A stretch of 64,000 nucleotides of DNA, from NCBI RefSeq assembly GCF_002024165.1, contig NZ_MWQN01000001.1:4381501-4445500 (forward strand), read 5' to 3'. A model generated the notes under the pieces. That model saw nothing but the letters and a program-made list of their open reading frames with translations, did not search any database and had not been told where the DNA came from. A program made the position numbers and the translations under genes. This stretch comes from Embleya scabrispora (GTDB taxonomy: Bacteria; Actinomycetota; Actinomycetes; Streptomycetales; Streptomycetaceae). Shown here piece by piece: positions 11,809 to 49,661 of the stretch; position 1 is the first letter of the stretch, and every line of letters begins with the position of its first letter.

Positions 11809-11821
11809 GGTGTTGCCGCTG

Positions 11822-11895
11822 TGCGCCGCCAGGGACTCGAACCCCGGACCCGCTGATTAAGAGTCAGCTGCTCTAACCAACTGAGCTAGCGGCGC
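11822..11895 (-). tRNA. tRNA-Lys (anticodon CTT), copy 1
   Basis: A 74-nt cloverleaf on the minus strand. Acceptor GCGCCGC pairs with GCGGCGC plus discriminator A. The D-arm is GCTC..GGTTAGAGC, the anticodon stem GCTGA/TCAGC with loop CTCTTAA (anticodon CTT, codon AAG), and the T-arm has GGTTCGAGTCC. CCA is not encoded. A likely -10 (TAGTAT, at 11910-11915 read on minus) lies 14 bp upstream. It is identical over its full length to the copy at 47348-47421. Confidence 0.97.
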
Positions 11896-12113: not shown

Positions 12114-13514
12114 ATGTCGGATGCCGGGGCGGTGCGGGCGTTCCGGATGGCCACGCATCGGGAGGGCGAGGTGGAGCCTCGACTCGTCGCGATGCGGGAC
12201 TTCCTGGCCAACGCCTCCGATGCCGAGGTGGTCCGCAACCGGGGACTGATCGAGAGCCAGATCCAGGCCGTGGCCACCCAGCAGCCGGAGACCGCCGCGC
12301 GCATGCTCGCCGACGTGCTCGGGCGCGACCCCCGGGGCCACTACGCCCGCGCGATCGACGCAGTGCTGCGCTGGTGGGTGGTTCAGCCCGGCAGCGACTT
12401 CGCGGAGACGTGGACCACGCTGGAGAAGGCGCTGGAGGCCGGACCGCGCCCGCTGGAGCGCGCGCTGCTCGACGTGCTCGGCGGCCTGGACCCGCGTGCG
12501 CCCGTCCGGCGCTGGCGGGTCGCCGCCACCACCCGGGTCCTGGACTGCCTGGAGGAGCGCTTCGAGCAGCCGGCCCGGCACCCCGACCACGACCTGTGGC
12601 GGCTGCTGCCCGTGGTCGCGCCGCCCGGGGCGCCGGGTACGCGGGCCGAATGGGTGTGCGTGATCGGCGACCGGGCCGCGGCGCGGGGTGCGGAGGCCGC
12701 GGCGCGCACCTGCTACCGGCTCGCCTTCGAACAGGGCTGTGCCGCCGCCGCGCCGCGCCTGGCCCACCGGCTGGCCGTGGAGGGGCATCGGGAGCTGACC
12801 GGCGGCGACCCGGAACGGGCGGTCCGGTATCTGTACGAGGCCGCGATGCTCGATCCGGACCACGCCGAGTATCGCGAACTGCACCGGGCCGCCGTCGCGG
12901 CACGGGACGGCGGCGCGGCGGCCGGCGTGCGGCCCGGGACGGCGGCGGCCCTGGTGGTCGCGGCGGCGGATCTGCTGGAGCGCGGCGACGACGCGGGCGC
13001 GGTGCGGCTGCTGCGGCGGGGGCTGCCGGGCGGCGGCGGGGCGTCGGGTCTCGGCGGGGTGTCGGGCGGTGGTGCCGCGACGGCCGGCGGTGCAGCGACG
13101 GTCGGCGCCGGCCCGGACGACGCCGGGCCCGAGCCGCACGTGGTCGAGGAGCCCTACGCCGACACCTGGCCCGCGCGGCTGCTGCTCGGCACGCTGGAGG
13201 GCGACGACTCGATGGTGGCCGGTGCCGCGCGCGACCTGCTCCGGCGCTACGGTGCGGGCTGGGTCCGCCGTACGCCCCTGGGCCCCGGCCTGGTGCTGCA
13301 CCGGGTCACCCGCGCCGACCCGGAACTGGCCGCCACGCTGCTCGAGTCGTCGCCGGCGGAACTGCGTGACGGACGACTCGGCCGGGCGGTCGCGACGGCC
13401 GCCGCATACCGAATACTGGCCTTGGGCGTACGGGACCTGGGAGCGGGACGGCCCGAGGCGGCCCGGGCCCGGGCGGACCTGGCCGAGCGGCTGCTCGCCG
13501 GCGACGAGGCGTGA
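12114..13514 (+). CDS. Chaperone cassette gene 1: large helical, TPR/Sel1-like protein
   Basis: 466 residues from ATG 12114, with GGGGGAG upstream. It is entirely helical in character, without signal or membrane segment. The middle (about 175-270) has Sel1/TPR-like pairs (AAARTCYRLAFEQGC, AVRYLYEAAMLDPDHAEY), then a Gly/Ala-rich linker (about 305-345) and another helical block. I do not recognise a named family. It is the first gene of a seven-gene run (to 21005) with gaps of 45 bp or less, so it is likely a scaffold or client-recognition subunit for the AAA+/Hsp70 proteins behind it. That role is inferred from context only. Confidence 0.75.
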   Translation: MSDAGAVRAFRMATHREGEVEPRLVAMRDFLANASDAEVVRNRGLIESQIQAVATQQPETAARMLADVLGRDPRGHYARAIDAVLRWWVVQPGSDFAETWTTLEKALEAGPRPLERALLDVLGGLDPRAPVRRWRVAATTRVLDCLEERFEQPARHPDHDLWRLLPVVAPPGAPGTRAEWVCVIGDRAAARGAEAAARTCYRLAFEQGCAAAAPRLAHRLAVEGHRELTGGDPERAVRYLYEAAMLDPDHAEYRELHRAAVAARDGGAAAGVRPGTAAALVVAAADLLERGDDAGAVRLLRRGLPGGGGASGLGGVSGGGAATAGGAATVGAGPDDAGPEPHVVEEPYADTWPARLLLGTLEGDDSMVAGAARDLLRRYGAGWVRRTPLGPGLVLHRVTRADPELAATLLESSPAELRDGRLGRAVATAAAYRILALGVRDLGAGRPEAARARADLAERLLAGDEA

Positions 13515-13559
13515 TCCGGCCCGGTGCGATCGAATCGGCGAGGCGGGGGAGAAGGCGAC

Positions 13560-15557
13560 GTGGAGACGGACATCCTGGGGGTGCCGGAGCAGGTGTTCGA
13601 CAGCGGGCTGCTGGTGGCCACCCGCCGGTTCGAGACCGCCTCGGCGGTGGCCCGCGAACTCGGCGCGCACACGGTCGAGGTCGCCCACACGCTGATCGCC
13701 CTGGCCCGGATCGACGGCGGGCGCGCCTGCGGCCTGTTCGCCCGCCAGGGCATCCCGCCGGACGTGCTCGCGGCCGGCCTGCTCGGCGGCGGCGGACCGG
13801 CCGCCGGGACGGCCGCCGGGGCGAGCGGCAACGGCCGGGGCGCGGGCGCGCTCGGCGGCCTGCCGGTCACCGCCGATTTGCGGGCCGGCTTCGCCGCCGC
13901 GGCGGACACCGGCTACGTCGACGAACGTGCGCTGCTCGCGGAGTTGTTGCCGCGCCTGGAGCCGGGCGCGGTGGACCTGCTCGTCGGCTACGGCCGGGTG
14001 GACCTCGACGCCTGGCGGGCCGAGGTGGCCGCGGCGCGCCCGGCGGCGGAGGTGTGCCGGGCCGACGGGTCGATCGACGAGGCCGCGTTCGCCCCGGGCG
14101 CCCGGCGGGTGCTGGCGATGATGGTCGCCGAGGCGAGCGGACTCGGCCGGCGGCAGTGCGGCATCGCGATGCTGCTGCACGCGCTGGCCACCACCCCGGG
14201 CGGACTCCTGGAGCAGGCCTTCCTGTTCCTGCGCCGGGACGTACGGGCGCTGCGCGAACAGACCATCGCGCTGACCGGCGCGCGGGTCCGCGGCCCGGCC
14301 GTCTCCGGCCCGATTCCCCCCGACGAGCCGCTGCGGCAGACCCTGCGCCGGGCGGCGACGTTCGCCGCGAGCGGCCCCGACCCGGACCCGGACACCGGCG
14401 CCCGGATCACCGAACGCGACCTGCTCGCCGCGCTCCTGGACACCCCCAGCGGCTTGGCGGCCGCGTTCTTCCGCGACATCGGCCTGGACCTGGAGCGGCT
14501 GCGCCGGTTCGCCGACACCTACTACCGCGAGCCCACCGAGCCCGAACCGGACCGGCCCGATACCCCGATGTCCCCCGAGGAGGCGGTCCGCCGGCTGCGC
14601 GCGGGACTGATCGGCCAGGAAAGCGTGGTCGAGCGGCTCGCCTTCCACGTCGAACTCATCAAACGTTCGCTCGCCCGCGGCTTCCGTCCGGACGACCGCC
14701 CGCGCGCGGCGCTGCTGCTGTGCGGCCCCAGCGGCTCCGGCAAGACGATGACCGCCCGGCTGCTCGCCGAGGTCGTCTACGGGTCCCAGGACGACGTCCT
14801 CGTCTTCGAGATGGGCCAGTTCAGCGCCCGCGAGTCGATCAACAACTTCATCGGCGCCCCGCCCGGCTACGTCGGCTTCGGCGAGGGCAAGCTCACCAAC
14901 GGCCTGCGCGACAATCCGCGCCGGGTGTTCCTGTTCGACGAGGTGGAGAAGGCCGACGCCCGGGTGCTCGACGCACTGCTCCGGCTGCTCGACGAGGGCC
15001 GGATCGGCGACCCGGCCGGCCCGGTACGCGAGGCGCACGACGCGGTGGTGATCCTGACCACCAACCTCGGCGCGATCCACTCCGCGGCCGAGGCCGTCGA
15101 GGACGACGTGGACAGCGTGGACAACCTGATCGGCTCGATCCTGGCCGAGGGCTCGACCGGGCACACCGCCGCGAGCGCCCGGCTGCGCCGCACGATGGAG
15201 GGGTTCTTCCGGCCCGAATTCCTCAACCGGGTGGACGAGGTGATCCTCTACTCGCCGTTCGGCCCCACCGAATTGCGCGGGATCGCGGAGAACGGCCTGA
15301 CCCGACTCGCCGCGCGGCTGCGCGACCAACTCGGCGTCGCGTTGACCTGGACCGACGAGGCCGCGGACCACATCGCCACCGTCGCCTGGCGCGGCCGGCC
15401 GGAGGAGGCGGCACGCGGCGTCAACCGCTGCGTCACCGCCGTGGTGCCGGGCGTGCTGCGCCTGCTCGACGAGGCCGACGCCGCCGGCCGGCCGATCGGC
15501 GCGGTCCGGGTGCGGGTGGTGGCCGGTGCGCTCGTGGTCGGGGGCGCCGATGACTGA
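13560..15557 (+). CDS. Chaperone cassette gene 2: ClpB/ClpA-like AAA+ ATPase with a single ring
   Basis: 665 residues from GTG 13560 (GGGGGAG eight bases upstream). The N-terminal 320 residues contain two or three Clp-N-like helical repeats (around 10-75, 175-240 and 285-320). One AAA+ module follows (about 345-660) of the ClpB second-ring type: Walker A GPSGSGKT (389-396), pore loop GAPPGYVGF (433-441), Walker B VFLFDEVEKA (456-465), sensor 1 ILTTN, arginine finger in FLNR, and a C-terminal small domain. The first AAA ring and coiled-coil M-domain of true ClpB are absent, as is a ClpP-binding IGF/L loop. It is probably an ATP-driven unfoldase/remodeller working with the downstream Hsp70 set. 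Confidence 0.88.
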   Translation: METDILGVPEQVFDSGLLVATRRFETASAVARELGAHTVEVAHTLIALARIDGGRACGLFARQGIPPDVLAAGLLGGGGPAAGTAAGASGNGRGAGALGGLPVTADLRAGFAAAADTGYVDERALLAELLPRLEPGAVDLLVGYGRVDLDAWRAEVAAARPAAEVCRADGSIDEAAFAPGARRVLAMMVAEASGLGRRQCGIAMLLHALATTPGGLLEQAFLFLRRDVRALREQTIALTGARVRGPAVSGPIPPDEPLRQTLRRAATFAASGPDPDPDTGARITERDLLAALLDTPSGLAAAFFRDIGLDLERLRRFADTYYREPTEPEPDRPDTPMSPEEAVRRLRAGLIGQESVVERLAFHVELIKRSLARGFRPDDRPRAALLLCGPSGSGKTMTARLLAEVVYGSQDDVLVFEMGQFSARESINNFIGAPPGYVGFGEGKLTNGLRDNPRRVFLFDEVEKADARVLDALLRLLDEGRIGDPAGPVREAHDAVVILTTNLGAIHSAAEAVEDDVDSVDNLIGSILAEGSTGHTAASARLRRTMEGFFRPEFLNRVDEVILYSPFGPTELRGIAENGLTRLAARLRDQLGVALTWTDEAADHIATVAWRGRPEEAARGVNRCVTAVVPGVLRLLDEADAAGRPIGAVRVRVVAGALVVGGADD

Positions 15558-16824
15558 CCGCGCACAATTGCGCGCGTTCGCCGCCCGGCTGCGCGAACAC
15601 GGCGCGGGCGACGGGCCGTTGGACGGCGAGGCGTACGCGAGCCTGGGCACCGGCGCCGACGCGCAGCCGTGGAGCGTGCGGGCCGAGGAGTTGTGGACCA
15701 CCGGCGGCGGCCCGTGGCGCACCCACCACCTCGCGGTCGCGCTGCACGCGCGCGCCTACGACCTGGAGTCGACCGGCGAGAGCGAGGCGGCCCACCCGTA
15801 CTGGAAACGGGCGTTGGCGCACTGGGCCGAGCTGTACCACGACAGCGCCTTTTGGGACCGGATGCACGAGCACCTGGAGGCGGTCGCCGGGAGCCCGGTG
15901 CCGGCGGCGACCGTCCAGGAGGTCCGCGAGCGGCTGCCGCGCGACCTGCTCGCCCCGCACCTGACCCTGGCCGCCGATCGGCGCCTGCGCGATCCGCTGT
16001 CCGCGCGCGCACACCTCGACCTGGTCCGCGAGTCCGGCTTCCCGCCGTCGGTGATCGCCAACGCCCGGGCCGACCTGGTCCGCGAGGCGCTGGCCGAGGC
16101 GTCGCGCGACGTCGAGGAGGGCCGCTACGACGACGTGGTCGAACTGCTCGCCTCCTGGCTCACGGTGGACCCCGGCAACGTGGAGGCGGCCCGGGCCCTG
16201 CTGTACGCGACCCGGCGCCACATCGAGATCGTGGTGGCCGCACCCGGGTGGGCGCACAGGATCGAGCCGCTGGTCGAGCGGGTGGCCCGGCTGGTGTTGC
16301 CCGCCTGGGACGAAGTGGGCACCCCCGCCGGTTCGTTCGCCGTCGAGCTGGCCCGGCACGAATACTGGCGCGGCATCGTGGTGCGCGAGTTGGAGTCCGG
16401 CCCGGCCACCGAACCCGCCGTACTGGAACAAGCCACGCTGCGCTCGGGCCGACACCTGCTGCGCGCCCTCGAACTCGACCGCGACCTGGCGCTCAAGAGC
16501 ATGTACCGCGATGTCGAGCAACTGGCCGCCGAGGAATGGGCGTTGGCCGCCACCGCCCGACAACGCCAGGGGCTGCCGGACGGACACGTGCGGGACGCGC
16601 TGCGCCGGGCGCTGGCGATGTCCGCGCCCGGGCCGTGGGGTCGGCTGTTCATGGCCCGCGTACTGATCAACCTGCACGCACCACAGCCGGAGGACCTGGC
16701 CACCGCCCGCCGGCTCGCCGACGAGGTGGCCGCCGACCCGGACGCGGACAAACCCGAGATCGTCAACGCGCTGCGCGGCGTCGTGTTGTCCCTGGCCACG
16801 GGGCACGGCCCCGCATGGAGTTGA
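15550..16824 (+). CDS. Chaperone cassette gene 3: helical repeat protein of unknown function
   Basis: 424 residues from ATG 15550, overlapping the AAA+ gene by eight bases. All-helical, with TPR-like segments such as YWKRALAHWAELYHDSAFWDRM and ARRLADEVAADPDAD and a WLTVDPGNVEAARALL repeat. No signal or membrane span. I recognise no named family. The W-R-x-L-A-H-W...FW pattern recalls TPR-like proteins that sit beside J-domain/Hsp70 genes in other bacteria, but that is memory, not a search. A second adaptor or scaffold role is inferred from the coupling. Confidence 0.72.
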   Translation: MTDRAQLRAFAARLREHGAGDGPLDGEAYASLGTGADAQPWSVRAEELWTTGGGPWRTHHLAVALHARAYDLESTGESEAAHPYWKRALAHWAELYHDSAFWDRMHEHLEAVAGSPVPAATVQEVRERLPRDLLAPHLTLAADRRLRDPLSARAHLDLVRESGFPPSVIANARADLVREALAEASRDVEEGRYDDVVELLASWLTVDPGNVEAARALLYATRRHIEIVVAAPGWAHRIEPLVERVARLVLPAWDEVGTPAGSFAVELARHEYWRGIVVRELESGPATEPAVLEQATLRSGRHLLRALELDRDLALKSMYRDVEQLAAEEWALAATARQRQGLPDGHVRDALRRALAMSAPGPWGRLFMARVLINLHAPQPEDLATARRLADEVAADPDADKPEIVNALRGVVLSLATGHGPAWS

Positions 16825-16830
16825 GTGCCG

Positions 16831-17292
16831 ATGGAACCCACCGCGAGCGAGGGCGCCCGGGAGAACCCCTGGGCCTGGCAGGCCGGCCGCAACCCCTACC
16901 GGGGCACCGCCTTCCAGATCCTGGACCTGGATCCGGACCTGACCGGCCGGGCGGCGATCAAGGCGCAGGTGCGCAAGCGCCGACAGCGGATCACCCGGAG
17001 CGCGGACCGCTTCCCGGTGCACGGCCGGGTGCTCGCACCGGCCGAGGTGAACGCGGCCGAGGAGGCGCTGAACGATCCCGCCGGGCGGCTGACGGCCGAA
17101 CTGCTCACCCACCGACCCGAGCGGCCCGGCCCCGATCCGGCCGAGTTGGCCGAGGAGTTCGCCGAGACCGACCCCCCGGAGTCGGCCGGGCCGACGCGGA
17201 TCGGGATCGACCGACGTGTGCTCGCGGGCCTGGTGCCGCCGCCCGCGCCACGCGAGTTCGTACCGTTGTGGACGGAAGAAGGGGCGCACTGA
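16831..17292 (+). CDS. Chaperone cassette gene 4: J-domain-like protein lacking HPD
   Basis: 153 residues from ATG 16831. GTG 16825, directly after the previous stop, is an alternative but is too near the GGAG. Residues about 25-95 follow the J-domain layout: AFQILDLDPDLTGRAAIKAQVRKRRQRI (read in two parts) as helices I-II, then a loop and AEVNAAEEALNDPAGRLTAE as helix III. The loop holds ADRFPVHG where HPD should be, so the Hsp70-stimulating tripeptide is missing. The C-terminal 55 residues are acidic, then Pro-rich. It lies between the two helical proteins and the GrpE-like gene. Family assignment is inference from fold pattern and context. Confidence 0.7.
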   Translation: MEPTASEGARENPWAWQAGRNPYRGTAFQILDLDPDLTGRAAIKAQVRKRRQRITRSADRFPVHGRVLAPAEVNAAEEALNDPAGRLTAELLTHRPERPGPDPAELAEEFAETDPPESAGPTRIGIDRRVLAGLVPPPAPREFVPLWTEEGAH

Positions 17293-18025
17293 TGGCAGCG
17301 ACACCCGAGCGGGGCCCCCTCGGGGCGGACCCGCCGGCGGATGCGGCGAGCCGGCCCGACCGGGGCGGCTCGCCCGCGCCCGCGTCGACCACATCGGCCG
17401 CGTCGCCCGGTTCCGCCGGGTCGGCCGATCCGGCCGCGTTCGCCGCGGACCCGATGGCGATCACCGAAAGCGAGCGCGCCGTGCCGGAACACGCGCTCGA
17501 CCCGCCGTTCGCGCTGGTCTACGACGTGGTGCGGCGAACCGCGCGCGAACGCGAGGCCGGGCGCGAGGAGATGCGCAAACGCCTGGAGTCCACCCACGAG
17601 CGGTACACCGGCCTGGCCGCGGACGCCGCGGTCGCGCTGCACGAGTTGCGCGGCTGCCTGGAGGGCGAGCCCGCGCCGGCCGTACTGGCCTCGATCGCCC
17701 GGCGGTTCGCGACGGCGCTCGATCGCGCGGGCGTACGCTTCGACGATCCCGTGGGCGAGGCGTACGCCGCGGTCGGCCGCCGGGTGGATGTCGCGCACGC
17801 CCCCGACAGCGGCGACGAGGCGGCGATGATCGTGGCCAGGACGCTGCGGCCCGGTGTGCTCCTCGACGACGGCGAGGTGATCCGCCGCGCACAGGTCGTG
17901 CTCGGCTTCGTACCCACCCCGGCCGAACGCGAGGCAGCCCCCGGGCGGACCGACGACCGGGACACCCCCGCGGCTCCGCGCCCCGAACCCTCGAACGACC
18001 CGAACTGCGAAGGCGGTAGCACCAG

Positions 18026-18029
<4 letters not shown>
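17292..18029 (+). CDS. Chaperone cassette gene 5: GrpE-like nucleotide-exchange factor
   Basis: 245 residues from ATG 17292, overlapping the previous stop by one base (TGATG). The first 60 residues are Pro/Ala/Ser-rich and disordered. A long helix (about 75-105, AREREAGREEMRKRLESTHERY) precedes a helical bundle and a short beta-wing (about 155-205: FDDPVGEAYAAVG, IVARTLRPGVLLDDGEVIRRAQVVLGF). The wing resembles the GrpE head segment HEAV...GYxLxGRVLRPAxVxV. It overlaps the Hsp70 gene by ATGA, which fits an exchange factor for that protein. Sequence is far from the housekeeping GrpE. Confidence 0.75.
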
Positions 18030-20593
<2,564 letters not shown>

Positions 20594-20594
20594 C

Positions 20595-21005
20595 ATGGCG
20601 TTCGCGATCACCTGCCCCCTGTGCCGCCGCCGGATCGCCGACCTGACCGGACGCTGCCCGGCCTGCGGCGGCGACCTCGGCGCGCTCGCCGGCCTCGTCG
20701 AACTGGCCGACCGCCACTTCAACGACGCGGTACGGGCGGCCCGAAGCGCCCGCTGGAACACCGCCGCCGAACACCTGGCGGTCACCCTCGCCCTCAACCC
20801 GGCCGACGCGGAGGCCCGCCAACTCCTCACCAAGGTCCGCTACCACCAGGACCCCAAAACCCTCCCGGACCGCCTGTGGCGCAAGGCCCGCGCCCACCTC
20901 CCCTACGGCGACCGCCTCCCCCGAACCCTCCCGAAGCAAGCCGCCCTGAACCACCTCCTGGAGGAGGCAACCCGCCGCTGGTCCACGATCCGAAAGCCGA
21001 CCTGA
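20595..21005 (+). CDS. Chaperone cassette gene 7: zinc-ribbon plus TPR-like small protein
   Basis: 136 residues from ATG 20595, one base after the Hsp70 stop. The N-terminus has CPLC (7-10) and CPAC (20-23), a four-cysteine zinc ribbon. Residues about 30-75 form TPR-like helices (AEHLAVTLALNPADAEARQLL), followed by a basic C-terminus. It could be the zinc-binding client or adaptor module that canonical DnaJ carries in the same chain as its J-domain, here split off. No enzymatic motif. It is last in the cassette, with a convergent gene at 21087. Confidence 0.78.
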   Translation: MAFAITCPLCRRRIADLTGRCPACGGDLGALAGLVELADRHFNDAVRAARSARWNTAAEHLAVTLALNPADAEARQLLTKVRYHQDPKTLPDRLWRKARAHLPYGDRLPRTLPKQAALNHLLEEATRRWSTIRKPT

Positions 21006-41240: not shown

Positions 41241-42815
41241 ATGTCAGCAGTAGACATGCCCCCTCGCGCCCGGTCCGAACGACCCCCGATGGGGCGGCCA
41301 CTGCTCGCCTTCGCGGTCGTGTCGATCTGTACCGCAGGCGCGGTCGTGTGGGCGGTGTCGGCCGTCGGCTCGAAGCATCGCACCACCGTCGCGGTGGGCG
41401 GCGTGGCGGTCGCGCTGGCGTTGGCCATCGCGGTCGCGGCCACCCTCTACGCGATCGGCACCGCAGAACTGTTGCGCGCCAGGGTCGCCACGTTGGAGGG
41501 TGACGCGGCCCGCTGGAACGACGCCAACCGGGACCGGATGTCCGCGTTCCAGGCCGAGGCGACCCGGGTCGCCGACCAGACGTTGCCCGCCCTGGTGGCA
41601 CTGCTGCGCGACGGCGCGTCGGTGGAGACCGCCCTGGCCGGTGTACCCACGCCGCAACACGAGGCGCTGGAGCGGATGTTGACCACCGTGGCCCGCGAGG
41701 TGGGCCAGGGCGAACGGATGCGTGCCGCCGCGATGTCGGCGTGCGCGAACGCTGCCGGCCGGGTGCAGGCGTTGTCCACCAGCATGCTCGCCGACCTGCG
41801 CGAGATGGAGAACCGGCACGGCGAGGAGGTCTTCGGAGACCTGCTCCGGCTCGACCACAGCACCGCTCAGGCGGGCCGGCTCGCGGACAGCATCGCGGTG
41901 CTCACCGGCGCGCGTTCGGGGCGGCGCTGGACCAAGCCGATCGTGATGGAGAGCATCCTGCGCGGCGCGGTCGGCCGGATCAGTGCCTACCAGCGGGTGC
42001 GGGTGCACTCCACCAGCGAGGCGGCGGTGGCCGGCTACGCGGCCGAGGGCGTGATGCACGCGCTGGCCGAACTGATGGACAACGCGACCAAGTTCTCGCC
42101 GCCCTCCGAGCAGGTGCACGTCTATGTCGAGGACGTGCCGGCGGGCGTCGTGGTCACGGTGGAGGACGGCGGCCTGGTGATGGGCGAGTTCGCCCTGCGG
42201 CGGGCGGAACAGGCGGTCTCGGCGGAGGCGTTGGACCTGACCACGCTCTCCGGGACGCGTCTGGGGCTGGCCGTGGTGGGTTGTCTGGCCCGCAAGCACG
42301 GGCTGACCGTGTCCTTCCGGCCGTCCTCGCGCGGCGGTACCGGCGTCGTGGTGATGATTCCGCGGCAGTTGGTCGGCGAGATCCGGCCCGAGCCGCGCAA
42401 GCGGGCCGCGCCCGAGGTGCGTTCGGGGCGGGCGCATCCCGTGGAGGCGGCGCCGGTGGCCCGCGCGATCACGGAGGCTCCCGCGGCACCCGCGACTCCT
42501 GCGGCACCTGTGGCACCGGCGGTACCCACGGCACCCGCGACTCCCTCGGCGCCCTCGGTGTTCGAGCCGGTGGCCGGGCAGGGGACCGAGCCGGCGCCCG
42601 CACCCACGCTGTCCCCACTGGCCAAGCGCCGCCCCGGACAGACCCTGGCCGCCGCGACCAGGGCGGCCGAGCGGGCCGAGTCGCGCTCGGACGCCGGTTC
42701 CCGCGAGACCAAACCGCGCCCCGCGCCCGGGGCCCGCTTCGGCGCGTTCCGCCAGGCGGTACAGGGCGAACGACCGGGTCGGGACGTGACGGCGTCCCCC
42801 GACGACAAGTCCTGA
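41241..42815 (+). CDS. cvnA: Conservon protein CvnA: membrane histidine-kinase-like sensor
   Basis: 524 residues from ATG 41241, with GAGGA upstream. Two membrane spans (about 21-41 and 51-72) with almost no outside loop. A helical dimerisation region contains EVFGDLLRLDHSTAQAGRLADSIAVLTG (read as short motifs; the conserved DLLRLDH). The ATPase-like domain has LAELMDNATKFSPP (N-box) and a GTRLGLAVVGCLARKHG G-box. The C-terminus is a Pro/Ala-rich tail. CvnA proteins usually lack standard phosphorelay behaviour. First of five coupled cvn genes. Confidence 0.93.
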   Translation: MSAVDMPPRARSERPPMGRPLLAFAVVSICTAGAVVWAVSAVGSKHRTTVAVGGVAVALALAIAVAATLYAIGTAELLRARVATLEGDAARWNDANRDRMSAFQAEATRVADQTLPALVALLRDGASVETALAGVPTPQHEALERMLTTVAREVGQGERMRAAAMSACANAAGRVQALSTSMLADLREMENRHGEEVFGDLLRLDHSTAQAGRLADSIAVLTGARSGRRWTKPIVMESILRGAVGRISAYQRVRVHSTSEAAVAGYAAEGVMHALAELMDNATKFSPPSEQVHVYVEDVPAGVVVTVEDGGLVMGEFALRRAEQAVSAEALDLTTLSGTRLGLAVVGCLARKHGLTVSFRPSSRGGTGVVVMIPRQLVGEIRPEPRKRAAPEVRSGRAHPVEAAPVARAITEAPAAPATPAAPVAPAVPTAPATPSAPSVFEPVAGQGTEPAPAPTLSPLAKRRPGQTLAAATRAAERAESRSDAGSRETKPRPAPGARFGAFRQAVQGERPGRDVTASPDDKS

Positions 42816-42895
42816 TCGCCCCTTCGCCGGGTGGTACGCAACGAGAGAACGGAGGCGGGGGCGGGCATCCGAGCGATGTCCACCCCGGAAGCCCT

Positions 42896-43360
42896 ATGAG
42901 CGCAACAGCACACGGCACCGAAGCGCAGCGGATCGACCCGCAACGGCGCTCCGAGCGCGATCTCGACTGGCTCCTGGAGAGCCTGATCGAGCGCACCCCG
43001 GGCACGCGGCACTCGCTGGTGTTGTCCAAGGACGGCTTGAAGCTGTGCCGTACCGGCGGGCTCACGATCGACCAGGCCGACCAACTCGCCGCCATAGCGT
43101 CCGGCATCCAGAGCCTGTCGCACGGCGCGTCGATCGAGTTCGGCGACGGCAGCGGCGGCGTGCGCCAGTCGATGACCGAGTTCCACGGCGGCATCCTGTT
43201 CATCGTCGAGGCCGGCGAGGGCGCCCACCTCGCGGTGATCGCGGACGACGACGCGGACGCCGGCGTGGTGGGCCACAACATGAACGAGTTGGTCGAGCAG
43301 ATCGGCGAGTATCTGAGCACACCGGCTCGGAACTTCGACGAAGGCGGCCGATCGGCATGA
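42896..43360 (+). CDS. cvnB: Conservon protein CvnB: roadblock/LC7 domain
   Basis: 154 residues from ATG 42896 (GGAAG upstream). Roadblock fold: LDWLLESLIERTPGTRHSLVLSKDGL, then ADQLAAIASGIQSLSHGAS and LFIVEAGEGAHLAVIADDDADAGVVG. Roadblock proteins regulate MglA-type small GTPases. In conservons CvnB pairs with CvnD. Stop overlaps the cvnC start by ATGA. Confidence 0.94.
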   Translation: MSATAHGTEAQRIDPQRRSERDLDWLLESLIERTPGTRHSLVLSKDGLKLCRTGGLTIDQADQLAAIASGIQSLSHGASIEFGDGSGGVRQSMTEFHGGILFIVEAGEGAHLAVIADDDADAGVVGHNMNELVEQIGEYLSTPARNFDEGGRSA

Positions 43361-43716
43361 TCCGGCGGCCAGTCGACAGCGGCGATCCGGACCGGCTGTA
43401 CACGGTCACCAACGGTCGAACGCGCGCCGACGAGGACGCGTTCGACCTGGTCACCCTGATCGTCAGCGAGTGCGAACCCACGCCGGGCATGCAGTCCGAG
43501 CACGTGCGGATCCTGCGGATGTGCGATCGACCGACCGCCGTGGTGGAGATCGCCGCCGAACTGGGCCTGCCCGTGGGCGTGGTGAAGATCCTGCTCTGCG
43601 ACCTGCTCGACACGGGGCGAATCACCGCGCGGCACCCGCGCCTGTCCCCGCGCCGGGCGCAACTACCCGATACCGAGATCCTGAAGCAGGTGCTCGTTGG
43701 ACTCCACAACCTCTGA
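43357..43716 (+). CDS. cvnC: Conservon protein CvnC (DUF742)
   Basis: 119 residues, ATG 43357 overlapping the cvnB stop. DUF742 motifs: RLYTVTNGRT near the start, a winged-helix-like core PTAVVEIAAELGLPVGVVKILLCDLLDTG, and a C-terminal TEILKQVLVGLHNL. It is probably the regulatory partner linking CvnA/B to the GTPase. The end of the gene overlaps cvnD by 20 bases. Confidence 0.94.
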   Translation: MIRRPVDSGDPDRLYTVTNGRTRADEDAFDLVTLIVSECEPTPGMQSEHVRILRMCDRPTAVVEIAAELGLPVGVVKILLCDLLDTGRITARHPRLSPRRAQLPDTEILKQVLVGLHNL

Positions 43717-44320
43717 GCTCGCCGCGTCCGCGCCGGCCGTGCGTACCCCCCTGGCGAGCACCGCGAGCGACGGGCTCAAGATCGCCATCGTGGGCGGGTT
43801 CGGCGTCGGCAAGACGACGATGGTGCGCTCGGTGAGCGAGATACGTCCGCTCAACACCGAGGAGACGATGACCCGGGCGGGTGTGGGCATCGACGACGCA
43901 CGCGGCGCGGACGGCAAGACCACCACCACGGTCGCCTTCGACTTCGGTCGGATCTCGCTCAACGACGAGATGGTGCTGTACCTGTTCGGCGCCCCCGGGC
44001 AGGAGCGCTTCTGGTTCCTGTGGGACCGGCTGTTCTCGGGCACGCTCGGCGCGGTCGTGCTGGTCGACCCCAGGCGGCTCGAGGACTCGTGGTACGCGAT
44101 CGACCGGCTGGAGCACCACGGCATGCCGTTCGTCCTGGCCCGCAACAACTTCGGGCCGCCCGAGCACACGCTGGAGGAGGTGCGCGACGCGCTGTCCCTG
44201 CCGCCGGAGATCCCGATGGTCGACTGCGACGCGCGCAGCCGGGAGTCCAGCAAGGCCGTGCTGATCGCGCTGGTGAACCACCTCTACACGTTGTCCTTCG
44301 CCCGGGAGCACGCCCTGTGA
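43697..44320 (+). CDS. cvnD: Conservon protein CvnD: small GTPase
   Basis: 207 residues from the rare start TTG 43697, inside the end of cvnC, with AGGTG just before it. P-loop GGFGVGKTT (residues 33-41), switch region FGAPGQERFWF (G3, with the usual Asp of DxxG absent), and RNNFG where the G4 NKxD should be. The missing G3 Asp and G4 motif are a family trait of conservon GTPases. Stop overlaps cvnE by GTGA. Confidence 0.94.
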   Translation: MDSTTSELAASAPAVRTPLASTASDGLKIAIVGGFGVGKTTMVRSVSEIRPLNTEETMTRAGVGIDDARGADGKTTTTVAFDFGRISLNDEMVLYLFGAPGQERFWFLWDRLFSGTLGAVVLVDPRRLEDSWYAIDRLEHHGMPFVLARNNFGPPEHTLEEVRDALSLPPEIPMVDCDARSRESSKAVLIALVNHLYTLSFAREHAL

Positions 44321-45615
44321 CCACGCCTTCGGACCTCAACGACCCGAACGCCCCGGCTCCGCCGCAGGGTTGCCCCGCGCACGCGGGCGGCGGGCCGGCC
44401 CTCGACCCCTCGCACGAGGGCGCCGCGCGGTTGTCCGGCCCGGGGTTGTGGCAGGACCCGCACGGGATGTATCGCAAACTACGCCAGGAGTACGGCTCGG
44501 TGGCGCCGATCCTGCTCGACGGCGACATCCCCGCGTGGTTCGTGCTCGGCTACCGCGAGGTGCACCACGTCACGGCGAACGACCAGATGTTCGCCCGCGA
44601 CTCGCGGCGCTGGCACGCGTGGGACCGGATCCCGCCGGACTGGCCGCTGATGCCGTTCGTCGGCTATCAGCCGTCGGTGATGTTCACCGAAGGGCCCGAG
44701 CACCGGCGCCGGGCCGGGGCGATCAGCGACGCGCTCGCGGCGGTGGACCAGTTCGAACTGCGCGCCCAGGCCGAGCGGATCGCGGACCGGCTGGTCGACG
44801 ACTTCGCCGGGGTGGGCGAGGCCGAGTTGATGGCGGACTACGCGCACCGGCTGCCCTCGCTGGTGGTGGCCCGGCTGTTCGGGCTGCCCGAGGAGGAGAC
44901 TCCGGATCTGGTCCGGGACCTGGCCGGCTCGTTGGACGGCGGCGAGGGCGCGGTGGAGGCGTACCTGCGGGTGCGGGACACGATGGCCCGACTGTTGCGG
45001 CGCAAGCGCGAACGCCCCGGCGCCGACGTGCCGTCGCGGTTGCTGGTGCACCCGGCCGAGTTGGCCGAGGAGGAACTGATCCAGGACATGCTCGTGGTGA
45101 TGGCCGCCGCCCAGCAGCCCACCGCGAACTGGATCGGCAACACGCTGCGGCTGATGCTGACCGACGACCGGTTCGCGCTGACCCTGTCCGGCGGCCGGCG
45201 CAGCGTCGGACAGGCGCTGAACGAGGTGTTGTGGGAGGACACCCCGACGCAGAACTTCATCGGCCGCTGGGCGGTGCGCTCGACGGTGCTCGGAGGGCAG
45301 AAGATCAAGGCCGGCGACCTGCTGGTGCTCGGGCTGTCCGCGGCCAACACCGACCCGCAGGTGCGGCCCGACTCGCACGCCGGCGCGGCGGGGAACAGCG
45401 CGCACATGTCGTTCAGCCACGGCGAGCACCGCTGCCCGTACCCGGCGCCCGAGTTGGCCGAGGTGATCGCCCGGGCGGCGATCGAGGTGCTGCTCGACCG
45501 GCTGCCCGACGTCCACCTGTCGGTGCCCACCCGGGAGCTGGTCTGGCGCGACTCGGTGTGGATGCGCGGTCTGGAGAACCTTCCGGTCGAGTTCACCCCG
45601 GCGTACGTGGGGTGA
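44317..45615 (+). CDS. cvnE: Conservon protein CvnE: cytochrome P450
   Basis: 432 residues from GTG 44317. Heme-ligand loop FSHGEHRCPY (FxxGxxxC). The I-helix reads AAAQQPTANW, without the acid-alcohol (E/D-T) pair that normally delivers protons for oxygen activation, and the ExxR helix reads NEVLWEDTP, where the expected E-x-x-R is not evident. These features recur in conservon P450s and suggest a sensor or unusual catalysis. Coupled to cvnD. Confidence 0.92.
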   Translation: MTTPSDLNDPNAPAPPQGCPAHAGGGPALDPSHEGAARLSGPGLWQDPHGMYRKLRQEYGSVAPILLDGDIPAWFVLGYREVHHVTANDQMFARDSRRWHAWDRIPPDWPLMPFVGYQPSVMFTEGPEHRRRAGAISDALAAVDQFELRAQAERIADRLVDDFAGVGEAELMADYAHRLPSLVVARLFGLPEEETPDLVRDLAGSLDGGEGAVEAYLRVRDTMARLLRRKRERPGADVPSRLLVHPAELAEEELIQDMLVVMAAAQQPTANWIGNTLRLMLTDDRFALTLSGGRRSVGQALNEVLWEDTPTQNFIGRWAVRSTVLGGQKIKAGDLLVLGLSAANTDPQVRPDSHAGAAGNSAHMSFSHGEHRCPYPAPELAEVIARAAIEVLLDRLPDVHLSVPTRELVWRDSVWMRGLENLPVEFTPAYVG

Positions 45616-45629
45616 TCCCGGGTCGGCGC

Positions 45630-45654
45630 GGGGACGGGCGGGTGACCCGTCCCC
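45630..45654. terminator. Bidirectional hairpin terminator
   Basis: GGGGACGGG / CCCGTCCCC, 9-bp perfect stem with 7-nt loop, between the convergent cvnE and P450 genes. Confidence 0.75.
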
Positions 45655-45702
45655 GAGGGGCTTGCGTGAGGCTCGGACCTATGGGACGCGGGACGGCGCG
45701 GC

Positions 45703-46917
45703 TCAGGCCGTGGGGGTGAAGGTGACCGGCAGCGCGACCGGGCCGCGGGTGAACACGCCCCTCTCGGTGGGTGCGAAGCCCGGCGCGAAGGCCAGGTCGG
45801 GCATCGCGTCCAGGAGTTGGTTGGTGCCCACCTCGACCTCGGCCACCGCGAGCAGCGCGCCGACGCAGAAGTGCCGGCCGAGCGCGAAGGACAGGTGGTC
45901 GGCCGCCGCGGAGAACGCCGTCCTGGCGGTCAGGTCCTCGCGGAAGATGTCGAACCGGTCGGGGTGCGCGTAGCGCCGGTCGTCCCGGTTCGCCGCGCCG
46001 ATCAGGCAGGTGAGCGTGCTGCCCGCGGGCACCACTCCACCGGTGAGTTCGACGTCCTCGGCGGGTTGGCGCATGATCATGTGCACCGGCGGCGAGTAGC
46101 GCAGCGTCTCGGCGAACGCCCGCGGGATCAGTGAGCGGTCCGCGCGCACCGCGGCGAGTTGGTCGGGGTGTTCGAGCAGGTTCTTGAACAGGCTCGCGAT
46201 CGCCTTGTCCGTCGTCTCGCCGCCGGCGGCGAGCAGCAGGCTGCAGAACGCCTTGATGTCCTCGTCGCTCATTCGGGTGCCGTCGATCTCCGCCCGGCAC
46301 AGCGTGGACAGCAGATCGTCTCCGGGATTCGCCCGCCGCTCGGCGATCAGCGGCAGCATGTACGCGGCGAACTCGTCCCGGGTGCGCAGCCCGGCGGCGG
46401 CCACACCGGGGTCCTGGCTCAGATTGCCCAGGAACGCGATGACCGAGGTGTACCAGCCCTGGAACCGCTCGTGGTCGGCCTGGTCCAGGCCGAGCATGTC
46501 GGCGATCACGTTGACCGGGAAGCGCTGCGCGAACTCCGGTACCAGGTCCACCGATCCGCGCGCGCGGAAGGTGTCCACCAGTTGTCGGGCGTTGCGCTCG
46601 ATCACCGGCATGAACGTTTCCTGAAGCGTGTTTCCGCGAAACGCGGGCGCCACCAGCGCGCGCCGCACCGCGTGTTCGCGCCCGCTCATCTGCAGGATGG
46701 TGCGCCCGTGCACTGGCTCCAACTGCCAGTCGTAGTTGTCGGTGGTGAACACCGGCTCCTTGAAAGCCCGTTCGAGGTCCGCGTAGCGCGAGATGATCCA
46801 ACTCTGCATGCCTTCGTGCCACAGCAGCGGGTGTTCGTCCCGCATGCTCCGGTAGAGGGGATACGGATCGGCCGCGAACTCGGGCGAAAGTATGTCGGGC
46901 ACATCCAGAGCGGTCAT
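45703..46917 (-). CDS. Cytochrome P450 (class I, soluble)
   Basis: 404 residues from ATG 46917 (AAGGGG about nine bases upstream). All canonical motifs: I-helix LLAAGGETTDKA (acid-alcohol pair ET), ExxR in AETLRYSPP, PERF-region HPDRFDIFR, and heme loop FALGRHFCVGALLA. It is a normal catalytic bacterial P450, in contrast to the conservon P450 it faces. No ferredoxin gene is adjacent. Substrate unknown. Confidence 0.95.
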   Translation of the reverse strand: MTALDVPDILSPEFAADPYPLYRSMRDEHPLLWHEGMQSWIISRYADLERAFKEPVFTTDNYDWQLEPVHGRTILQMSGREHAVRRALVAPAFRGNTLQETFMPVIERNARQLVDTFRARGSVDLVPEFAQRFPVNVIADMLGLDQADHERFQGWYTSVIAFLGNLSQDPGVAAAGLRTRDEFAAYMLPLIAERRANPGDDLLSTLCRAEIDGTRMSDEDIKAFCSLLLAAGGETTDKAIASLFKNLLEHPDQLAAVRADRSLIPRAFAETLRYSPPVHMIMRQPAEDVELTGGVVPAGSTLTCLIGAANRDDRRYAHPDRFDIFREDLTARTAFSAAADHLSFALGRHFCVGALLAVAEVEVGTNQLLDAMPDLAFAPGFAPTERGVFTRGPVALPVTFTPTA

Positions 46918-47677: not shown

Positions 47678-49587
47678 ATGGCCATGCGGCAGGGGGCCGG
47701 TCCTTCGTCCGGGAATGTCCGGCTCAAGGCCCTGCGGCACTCGCATGGCTGGGTTTCCCAGCAACAATTGGCCGACGCGTTCGAGAAGAAGGCGCTCGAA
47801 TGCGGTCTCCGCCTCGGGGTGAGCGTGCGGCAGGTGCGCCGGTGGGAAAGCGCCGAGCCGCCCTGGCCGACCCCCGATTATCAGCAGGTCCTACAGGCTT
47901 TGTTCGAGCGACCGCTGACCGATCTCGGGTTCACCCCGCCGTGGCAGGCGGAGCTGACGGCGGAGTACGGCGAGGGTTATGCCGAGGGGTTCACCGAGGG
48001 CTACCCCGAGCCGCAGCCCGCGCTCGAGCAACCGGCGCCGCCGCCGAGTCTTCCCGCGCCCGCCCGCGAAGCCGGGTGGGCGCCGGAGCTTCCGGAGCCG
48101 ACCGCCTACGGCGAGGCCCGGGTACGCCGACAACCACCGCCGCCGGGCAGCAGCCCGCTCGGGGGGGCGATGGCGCTGCCCGCCCGCACCGCACCCCCGT
48201 CGCCCGGCCGCACCGCGCCGCCGGCCGCCCCGGGCCGGACGCCGCCCCCACCCGGCCGGCACGTGCCGCCGCCGCGATCCGGCCCGGTGCCGCCGCCGGG
48301 GCCCGTACCGCCGCCCGGCATCACGCCCCCGCCCGGCCCGGTGCCCCGCCCGGCCTCGCGTCCGTGCCGGCCCAGGCGCCGCCGTTCGAGGACGGCCCCA
48401 CCGTGGTCGACGGCCGGCGGCTGGAGGGCGATCGGCCCCGTGACCTGCCGGTTCGGCCACCGCTACGGGTGATCGGCTCCCCCTCCGCCCCTGTCGAGGC
48501 GCCGTCCCGGTCCCTGGAGATCGCCACCCCCGCCGTGCTGCGCCAGCTCCTGCGCGACACCCCCGACCCGGGCCCGCTGGCCGTGCCGATGCACTCGCGG
48601 GCCGGCCGGCTGACCGTGGTCGGCGCCGACCAGTACGCGATGCTCACCCGGACCTACCGGCAGATGTACTGGGTCGCCCCCGCCGCCATCGCCTACCCCT
48701 CGGTGATCACCCACGTGCGCCTGGGCACCCAACTGCTCGCCGCCCCCGGCCCGGCCCGGGCCCGGCGGATCCTGGGCGCCTCGCTCGCCGAGACCGCGAT
48801 GCTGGCCGGCCGGATGGCCTTCTTCGACCTGGACCGCCCGCACGACGCGCAGGACCACTACCTGGTCGCCTACCGGGCCGCCAACGAGGCGGCCGACACC
48901 CTGCTCGCCGCCGCCGTACTCGCGCACACCGCCTTCATCCCCGCCTTCGACGCCGCTCCCACGGCCGCGGCGGACATCCTCGACTTCGCCCGCAAGACGG
49001 CTACGCGCGATGCGCCGACGGTGATGCGCGCCTGGTTCGACGCGGTGCAGTCCGAGTTCGAGTCGTTGCGCGGCACTCCCGAGCGCGGGCTGCACCTGCT
49101 CGACCGGGCCGAGGACCTGCTGTGCCACCCCGACAACACCCCCACCCCGCCGTGGCTCGACTTCTTCGACGCCTCCCGGCTGTGGGGTTTCCGCGGCAGG
49201 GCCGAACTCACCGCACGCCGGATGGACCAGGCCCAGAGCTCGCTCAACGACGCGCTGCAGAACCTGCCGCCCAACGGCGACAAGCAGCGCGCGGTGATGT
49301 ACGCCGACCTCGCCGAGGCGGCCTTCCAGGCGGGCGAGGTGGACGAGGCGTGCGGCCGGCTGTTCCAGTCCATCGACATGTTGCGGGTGCACTGGTACTC
49401 GATGGGCATGGACCGGGTCCGGGACACCCGCAAGCAACTGGAGCCGTACAAGAATTCGGTCGCGGTGCGGCAATTGGACGAGGCGCTGGCGTCCTTCTCC
49501 GAACTCGCGCCCACCGACGAGACCGGCTTCGTGGCCCTGCCCTCGGCCGAGGATCAGCGTGCCGATCGGCGTGACGACCGGCGCTGA
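47678..49587 (+). pseudogene. XRE-TPR regulator with an apparent one-base frameshift
   Basis: The gene starts at ATG 47678 (GGGAGGG upstream; ATG 47684 possible). The first frame gives a helix-turn-helix (LKALRHSHGWVSQQQLADAF ... VSVRQVRRWESAEPPWP, about 15-70) and a Pro/Gly-rich linker, then runs into a stop at 48472. The reading frame of a C-terminal TPR domain (about 48480-49587: ALLPELAEAAF-like helices, KQRAVMYADLAEAAFQAGEVDEAC) is one base off. Adding one C to the C-run at 48344-48347 restores VPPPGLASVPAQAPP and a protein of about 636 residues, as in related streptomycete regulators. It is either a true mutation, a slippage site, or a sequencing error. Confidence 0.8.
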
Positions 49588-49661
49588 GTTCCGCCTGTCG
49601 GTCACATGGTCCACACTGACCCGGGACCGGACGGTTCGACGACGAAAGCCGTACACGAGAC

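What the first reader, a model, noticed from the sequence alone, without database searches (positions are those of the whole stretch)
12114..21005. Seven-gene diverged chaperone/disaggregase cassette with no named counterpart
Seen: seven genes on one strand with gaps of 45 bp or less and mostly overlapping stops and starts. They encode a TPR-like protein, a ClpB-type AAA+ ATPase, a second helical protein, a J-like protein, a GrpE-like protein, an 855-residue Hsp70 and a zinc-ribbon protein. Known: DnaK, DnaJ, GrpE and ClpB cooperate in disaggregation but are usually encoded in separate housekeeping loci. Inferred: this is a self-contained second machine for a special client or condition (phage defence, secretion, developmental or metabolic-complex remodelling). 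I know no named system with this composition.
Basis: partly seen in the sequence, partly recalled or inferred. Interest (0 to 1): 0.88.

Follow-up and report, generated by a model that had tools for sequence, protein, structure and literature searches.

The report
Self-contained rewired Hsp70–AAA+ chaperone operon
Seven neighbouring genes in a soil actinobacterium, found in the same order in distant relatives, appear to encode a second protein-remodelling machine built from altered chaperone parts in which the usual contact motifs between the parts are missing; what it acts on is unknown.

Summary
In detail: seven co-directional genes (12114-21005), gaps of 45 bp or less, three of six junctions overlapping. 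It is additional to the housekeeping dnaK-grpE-dnaJ-clpB locus, 1.2 Mb away. It is not a plain copy of that machine: ATPase motifs are kept, but 12 of 12 J-like proteins examined lack HPD, 5 of 5 Hsp70s have Glu for the HPD-contact Arg and no VLLL linker after the NBD, and the ClpB-like ATPase has one ring and no M-domain. A J-like, GrpE-like, Hsp70, zinc-ribbon core recurs without AAA+ in three other genomes of the family. Best reading: a dedicated, rewired Hsp70/AAA+ remodelling machine, probably at the membrane in three relatives; client unknown. Weak points: J and GrpE identity rest on bridging homologues, and an Hsp70 peptide-binding domain could not be shown for this cassette type. Phage defence is not supported.

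The parts
12114..13514 (+). Gene A: helical scaffold-like protein, 466 aa; homologues in L058, L059 and L064 (674-706 aa) carry 4, 4 and 3 hydrophobic segments near the N terminus, the three Embleya copies tested none
   Evidence: no significant Pfam hit in the window; L064 homologue TPR_2 0.0011, below cut-off
13560..15557 (+). Gene B: ClpB-like AAA+ ATPase, 665 aa: two Clp_N stretches then one D2-type AAA domain; no D1, no M-domain; Walker A/B kept, GYVG pore loop
   Evidence: Pfam AAA_2 8.8e-34, Clp_N 6.7e-11 (14); NCBIfam ClpB profile matched at 562-821 of 853 only; alignment of five
15550..16824 (+). Gene C: second helical protein, 424 aa; a homologous stretch is fused behind a J-like domain in L023
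   Evidence: profile E 3.4e-9; best of 300 shuffled sequences 0.14; TPR_19 0.039, below cut-off
16831..17292 (+). Gene D: degenerate J-like protein without HPD, 153 aa
   Evidence: no Pfam hit
17292..18029 (+). Gene E: GrpE-like protein, 245 aa
   Evidence: not hit by Pfam GrpE itself
18026..20593 (+). Gene F: Hsp70, 855 aa: NBD (1-378), about 100 residues of inserted beta-rich sequence (about 379-482), a further beta-rich stretch in the place of the SBD-beta (about 483-585, identity not shown), helical C-terminal domain (592-840)
   Evidence: SBD-beta controls negative
20595..21005 (+). Gene G: zinc-ribbon-like protein (CPLC...CPAC) with a helical tail, 136 aa
   Evidence: AAA-type versus type II 98.1% probability

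Best explanation
The seven genes are one operon for a dedicated Hsp70/AAA+ protein-remodelling machine, separate from the cell's general DnaK-ClpB disaggregase. Proposed working: gene A (with hydrophobic, probably membrane-spanning segments in three relatives) and gene C are helical scaffolds; C holds the J-like adaptor D, as in a natural J-C fusion; D, lacking HPD, positions the Hsp70 (F) on its client instead of triggering hydrolysis in the usual way; E resets F as a GrpE-type exchange factor; G is a zinc-ribbon adaptor; F hands the client to B, a single D2-type ring with Clp N-domains that threads it through its pore. Shown: the gene block, its conservation, the domain make-up, the kept ATPase motifs, the missing canonical motifs. 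Inferred: complex formation, client binding, threading, membrane site. Client unknown.
For: All seven genes in one order in four genera; the Murinocardiopsis+MAG pair appears in 7 of 7 gene trees; purifying selection within Embleya. ATPase motifs kept in F and B. J-like to type II J-like 95.5%; joint profile of nine to J domains, best 1.4e-4; L036 Pfam DnaJ 0.0026, below cut-off. GrpE-like to type II 84.6%; type II over the Pfam GrpE cut-off. C-D type fusion in L023. Hydrophobic segments in gene A of L058, L059, L064. Housekeeping DnaJ of the same genome has HPD, so the loss is not genome-wide. Foldseek aligns the Hsp70 model over 600-730 columns to DnaK structures, but TMq is 0.37 and model pLDDT 66.5.
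Against: No expression, interaction or activity data. The AAA-type Hsp70 tail is not recognisable as SBD-beta: a profile of five finds no Hsp70 in the PDB; hhalign to DnaK tails 4.4%, outside the expected register, and to type II tails 1.1%, in the expected register but reached by 1 of 40 shuffles; the 3.8e-7 match of the mixed profile is thus carried by its three type II rows. AAA-type J profile: no J domain in the PDB, hhalign to canonical J 0.6%. AAA-type plus L024 GrpE profile: unrelated chains. GrpE model failed. The pore tyrosine is leucine in G851. No hydrophobic segment in gene A of the three Embleya copies tested. No HAIR or CIRCE operator in the window. Rare: 1 of 245 other class genomes at E 1e-60.
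Confidence: 0.45

Rival explanations
1. The Hsp70-like and AAA+ proteins act as nucleotide switches or an assembly platform for one membrane complex or signalling route, without unfolding clients.
For: Missing coupling motifs; no demonstrable peptide-binding domain in F; hydrophobic segments in gene A of three relatives; pore tyrosine lost in G851.
Against: Walker A/B kept in 5 of 5 aligned AAA proteins and the pore tyrosine in 4 of 5 (84).
Confidence: 0.24
2. An ordinary second DnaK-DnaJ-GrpE-ClpB disaggregase that works by the textbook cycle.
For: Same kinds of protein; NBD, Clp_N and D2-type ring kept.
Against: No HPD in 12 of 12 J-like proteins examined; Arg to Glu at the HPD-contact position and no VLLL linker in 5 of 5; no D1 or M-domain, the Hsp70 dock of ClpB (PMC8129007 passages); scores far below the DnaK and ClpB equivalog cut-offs.
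Confidence: 0.11
3. A conflict or phage-defence module in which chaperones hold or release an effector.
For: Published theme: Hsp70, GrpE and DnaJ- or TPR-bearing proteins beside GAP1-N2 GTPases, mostly actinobacteria and firmicutes (PMC7159879 passages). The AAA stretch matches PADLOC PDC-M37B (3.7e-24) and DolB (1.3e-11). A kinase-TPR-WD40 gene lies just upstream in G851.
Against: No GTPase, FNIII, nuclease or toxin among the seven by Pfam and NCBIfam; neighbours were not searched systematically. Shared flanks in Embleya. No plasmid or phage record at 80% coverage for the queries run.
Confidence: 0.13
4. A decaying duplicate of housekeeping chaperone genes.
For: Degenerate J and GrpE sequences.
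Against: dN/dS 0.15-0.28 in all seven genes within Embleya; no broken frame seen in the members read; block kept across two orders.
Confidence: 0.03

Closest known systems
DnaK-DnaJ-GrpE-ClpB bichaperone (housekeeping copy at G000:C1 3.17-3.18 Mb)
   Same: Same kinds of protein; in this genome also clustered
   Different: No HPD, no VLLL linker, no D1/M-domain, three extra proteins; cassette Hsp70s form their own clade, 100/100 (83)
GAP1-N2 GTPase-centric conflict systems, Hsp70/GrpE theme (PMC7159879)
   Same: Hsp70 and GrpE encoded beside DnaJ- or TPR-bearing proteins (passages)
   Different: No GTPase or FNIII among the seven; the passages do not mention a ClpB-like ring
HscC with DjlB/DjlC and HscA-HscB (PMC8215388, passages and part 1 of section 12)
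   Same: Specialised Hsp70 with its own J proteins
   Different: Those are J-stimulated, lack the GrpE signature and are shorter than DnaK; here a GrpE-like gene is present, HPD is gone and the Hsp70 has 855 aa
ClpG/ClpK disaggregase (PMC8129007, passages)
   Same: Hsp100 with an extra N-domain and a reduced M-domain role
   Different: ClpG has two AAA domains; gene B has one
Type II cassettes of the same family (L025, L035, L036; found here)
   Same: J-like, GrpE-like, Hsp70 and zinc ribbon in the same order
   Different: A TPR protein of 1398-1510 aa in place of A-B-C; cysteine-rich, zinc-ribbon-like insert in the Hsp70 (by eye); HPD-contact Arg kept; SBD-beta clear, 96.7% to DnaK

Membership tests
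DnaK-type Hsp70 (gene F) | Nucleotide-binding domain with ATPase motifs | tested here: met
   Pfam HSP70 3.9e-68 over 4-376 (14); motifs aligned
DnaK-type Hsp70 (gene F) | Hydrophobic linker VLLLD after the NBD | tested here: not met
   5 of 5 AAA-type Hsp70s lack VLLL there; about 100 residues inserted
DnaK-type Hsp70 (gene F) | SBD-beta peptide-binding domain | tested here: inconclusive
   Mixed profile of seven (three type II) 3.8e-7 (53); AAA-type rows alone: no Hsp70 (115), hhalign 4.4% to DnaK and 1.1% to type II; AF2 below pLDDT 50 there
DnaK-type Hsp70 (gene F) | DnaK equivalog score | tested here: not met
   257.7 against 648 and 247.6 against 822.55 bits
J-domain protein (gene D) | HPD motif | tested here: not met
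   0 of 12 J-like proteins examined, four of them close Embleya copies
J-domain protein (gene D) | J-domain sequence or fold | tested here: inconclusive
   Joint profile of nine 1.4e-4; AAA-type five alone no hit; no Pfam hit for window, L058, L064; L036 0.0026, below cut-off; hhalign to type II 95.5%, to canonical J 0.6% though the score exceeds 60 of 60 shuffles
GrpE (gene E) | Pfam GrpE match above cut-off | tested here: not met
   No hit for the window protein or L021, L058, L059, L064; type II L025, L035, L036 pass
GrpE (gene E) | Profile relation; long helix plus beta domain | tested here: inconclusive
   hhalign to type II 84.6%, to two canonical GrpE 40.1%, 0 of 60 shuffles each; AF2 shows a long helix, rest failed; joint profile of eight has GrpE second at 0.54 (42)
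ClpB (gene B) | Two AAA domains | tested here: not met
   One AAA domain (14); ClpB profile matched at 562-821 of 853 only
ClpB (gene B) | M-domain | tested here: not met
   ClpB profile before 562 unmatched
ClpB (gene B) | Clp N-domain and aromatic pore loop | tested here: met
   Clp_N 6.7e-11 (14); GYVG in 4 of 5 aligned, GLVG in G851 (84)
GAP1-N2 GTPase conflict system | GAP1-N2 GTPase with FNIII protein | tested here: not met
   None among the seven by Pfam and NCBIfam; neighbours not searched systematically
Known anti-phage system (PADLOC) | Hits covering system proteins | tested here: not met
   AAA-stretch matches on gene B, CARF 0.012 on gene D, PDC-M61B 0.064 on gene F only
Any chaperone machine | Biochemical activity | not testable with these tools
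   needs protein work

The most novel reading that the evidence does not exclude
A complete Hsp70-AAA+ remodelling machine in which the known couplings (J-domain HPD to Hsp70, interdomain linker, ClpB M-domain) have all been replaced by other contacts, made by helical scaffolds, an HPD-less J-like adaptor and a domain inserted into the Hsp70, and which acts on one dedicated client at the membrane.
Probability: 0.32. Interest if true: 0.85.

Novelty: new variant of a known kind. Interest (0 to 1): 0.6.

Why it matters
Hsp70 function is held to need HPD contact and the hydrophobic linker, and ClpB cooperation to need the M-domain. A conserved natural operon that keeps the ATPase parts and drops all three would let one test directly whether an Hsp70 and a Clp-type ring can be coupled in another way, and could add a further kind of dedicated bacterial Hsp70 system beside HscA and HscC.

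Tried and rejected
Ordinary paralogue: set low on coupling motifs. Five AAA+ loci of the phylum scan with frames of 654-682 aa (L049-L053; other such rows not opened) look like ClpB-type genes with a D1 motif at the front, by eye, and have no Hsp70 match in the stretch fetched. Of 2102 plasmid records matching gene B, I opened two; neither carries the cassette. A relation of genes A or C to the giant TPR proteins: weak pairwise matches (gene C about 1e-4) were not confirmed by profiles of five; not claimed. Kinase association: seen in G851, L023 and beside L035, not noticed by eye beside L058 or L059, no control run; not claimed. Heat-shock operators: none. The sigma-70 scan found none, uninformative at this GC. 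The Hsp70 insert has no clear PDB relative and only a weak Pfam hint (0.043). Gene C against the PDB gave nothing useful; gene A was not tried there; PHROGs gave nothing for A, C, D, E, G.

Prevalence of type II cassettes was not obtained: the search failed three times.

Caveats of counts: the 14 further Hsp70 loci (L023-L036; 13 from other genera, one, L033, the own second dnaK) were picked by me for long or odd frames, so '3 of 14 type II' is no rate. The HPD count takes the 12 J-like rows I chose: 7 AAA-type, 3 type II, L023 (first 126 residues) and L030; L024 was left out because the gene in that place is not recognisably J-like, and a J-like 346-aa neighbour in L026 was not counted. The GTDB scan used two peptide patterns only and would miss members lacking both. 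In the tree rows L033 and L034 are stop-to-stop frames with non-coding residues at the front.
Full report
Observation. The window lies at 4381501-4445500 of contig C1 of a 10.96 Mb genome. Seven genes run on the + strand from 12114 to 21005; gaps are 45, -8, 6, -1, -4 and 1 bp. Pfam sees two of them clearly: gene B (AAA_2 8.8e-34, Clp_N 6.7e-11) and gene F (HSP70 3.9e-68 over residues 4-376); the other five have no match above cut-off in the window itself.

Conservation. Among 41 genomes searched with the Hsp70, the four of the window's genus (own included) carry full-length homologues of 88-100% identity. In two of the three others all seven genes are there in order; in the third the contig starts inside gene C, leaving five. 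The Hsp70 tail (475 residues) was found in 1 of 396 phylum genomes, the own one; the first 337 residues of gene B gave the own genome plus two weak partial hits in 293 order genomes. A scan of the named GTDB collection with gene B, by two peptide patterns, returned four loci: E. hyalina, E. scabrispora, Murinocardiopsis flavida (51%) and an actinomycete MAG (51%). The last two hold all seven genes in order (the J-like gene of the MAG was missed by my gene caller and read). Of 246 class genomes searched with the Murinocardiopsis Hsp70 at E 1e-60, two match, the own and G851 of another family, the latter again with all seven genes (the zinc ribbon read by eye, one N in it). Of 35 genomes of the order of G851 only G851 has it. 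Identities to the window for the three non-Embleya members: Hsp70 54-59%, AAA 52-55, J-like 51-57, GrpE-like 41-43, zinc ribbon 40-52, gene A 31-36, gene C 33-37; the Murinocardiopsis-MAG pair appears in 7 of 7 gene trees. Embleya is in Kitasatosporales, Murinocardiopsis in Streptosporangiales. Within Embleya all seven genes are under purifying selection (dN/dS 0.15-0.28). No plasmid record covers 80% of gene B or F and no phage record 80% of gene F.

Independence from housekeeping. In the same genome dnaK, grpE, dnaJ (with HPD), an hspR-like gene and clpB lie within 9.7 kb at C1 3.170-3.180 Mb (dnaJ and hspR named by eye). The cassette is 1.2 Mb away. So the statement that these genes are usually in separate loci does not hold here, but the cassette is additional. 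In an NBD tree of 17 rows the five cassette Hsp70s form a clade with 100/100 support on a long stem.

A wider family. Of 14 further Hsp70 loci that I picked, three (L025, L035, L036) have the order giant TPR protein, J-like, GrpE-like, Hsp70 of 845-854 aa, zinc ribbon, without an AAA+ match; two more (L023, L024) are looser variants. I call the three type II. Zinc ribbon, J-like and GrpE-like proteins of both types are related by profile comparison (98.1%, 95.5%, 84.6%; 0 of 60 column shuffles reach any of these). In L023 a J-like domain and a stretch homologous to gene C are one protein (3.4e-9; best of 300 shuffled sequences 0.14), which suggests that C and D work together.

Identity of the parts, for and against. 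J-like: a joint profile of nine finds J domains in the PDB (best 1.4e-4) and L036 scores 0.0026 with Pfam DnaJ, below cut-off. The five AAA-type sequences alone find nothing and hhalign to two canonical J domains gives 0.6%, though the score exceeds all 60 shuffles. GrpE-like: L025, L035 and L036 pass the Pfam GrpE cut-off; the window protein and four relatives do not, a profile of the AAA-type plus L024 finds unrelated chains, and a joint profile of eight has GrpE second at 0.54. hhalign to two canonical GrpE gives 40.1%, E 3e-4 over 118 columns. The AF2 model has a long helix but mean pLDDT 48.6. I regard both as probable diverged members, not as shown. Hsp70 tail: in type II it is a clear SBD-beta (96.7% to DnaK tails). 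For the AAA-type I could not show it: the mixed profile of seven tails hits SBD structures at 3.8e-7, but five AAA-type tails alone find no Hsp70, and hhalign gives 4.4% to DnaK and 1.1% to type II, the latter in the expected register but matched by 1 of 40 shuffles. The AF2 model (mean pLDDT 66.5) is below 50 in most of that stretch; Foldseek aligns the whole chain to DnaK structures at TMq 0.37.

Missing couplings. PMC8215388 (passages and part 1 of section 12 read) states that replacements in HPD abolished J stimulation in every system tested, that the Asp of HPD bonds to DnaK Arg167, and that the linker raises the ATPase rate. PMC8129007 (passages) states that Hsp70 docks on the ClpB M-domain. 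Here HPD is absent in 12 of 12 J-like proteins examined; the residue aligned with Arg167 is Glu in 5 of 5 AAA-type Hsp70s and no VLLL follows the NBD, about 100 residues being inserted (DnaK numbering by alignment and recall). Type II Hsp70s keep the Arg, so the loss is not uniform. Gene B has no D1 and no M-domain and no LGF/IGF-type ClpP loop that I could see (motif recalled). ATPase motifs are kept in F and B; the pore tyrosine is kept in 4 of 5.

Where it acts. By simple hydropathy gene A has four hydrophobic segments in Murinocardiopsis and the MAG, three in G851 and none in the three Embleya copies tested; the giant TPR proteins L035 and L036 have one at the N terminus, L025 none. A membrane site in several members is an inference.

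Mechanism and verdict. The best-supported account is a dedicated, rewired Hsp70/AAA+ remodelling machine (0.45). Rivals: a switch or assembly platform without unfolding (0.24), a conflict module (0.13), a textbook disaggregase (0.11), decay (0.03). I found no such named system in eight searches of open-licence PMC papers (17, 36, 37, 85, 86, 87, 106, 107; listings only, except the papers named here). The nearest theme is the Hsp70/GrpE class of GAP1-N2 systems in PMC7159879 (passages). PMC13152386 on Embleya (passages) holds none of the words Hsp70, dnaK, GrpE or ClpB. I rate it a new variant of a known kind.

Noticed in passing
window 11821-11895: A tRNA-Lys(CTT) gene lies just upstream of the cassette on the other strand in the window, L056 and L057, none in L058, L059 or L064 (81): a possible insertion site in Embleya.
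   Followed up: partly
window 16263-16357: ARAGORN calls a tRNA-Asn inside gene C; inside gene C of L057 it calls a tRNA-Ser. Likely false positives.
   Followed up: partly
window 41289-46917: Histidine-kinase-like protein (HATPase_c) followed by two small proteins, a GTP-binding-like protein and two P450-like genes, the last on the other strand (by eye); looks like a conservon (recalled name).
   Followed up: no
window 48469-53718: Four co-directional genes, three without a Pfam match at 1e-4 and one AAA_11-type helicase-like protein; unexplained operon.
   Followed up: no
L064:570-4328: A Ser/Thr kinase with TPR and WD40 repeats, 1252 aa, 220 bp upstream of gene A in G851.
   Followed up: partly
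L032:9106-18966: In G014 a 586-aa Hsp70-like protein lies beside proteins of 248, 580 and 1821 aa, near a DUF262-like gene (by eye); perhaps another Hsp70-linked system.
   Followed up: no
L060:7476-9338: Plasmid operon in Moellerella wisconsensis: AAA, PIN, unknown, AAA with similarity to gene B residues 186-601 (28%), 4Fe-4S protein.
   Followed up: no
L030:8316-10749 and L026:7499-10265: J-like proteins beside non-cassette Hsp70s in G027 (648 aa; HPD absent) and G012 (565 aa; seen by eye), hinting that such pairs are more widespread.
   Followed up: partly
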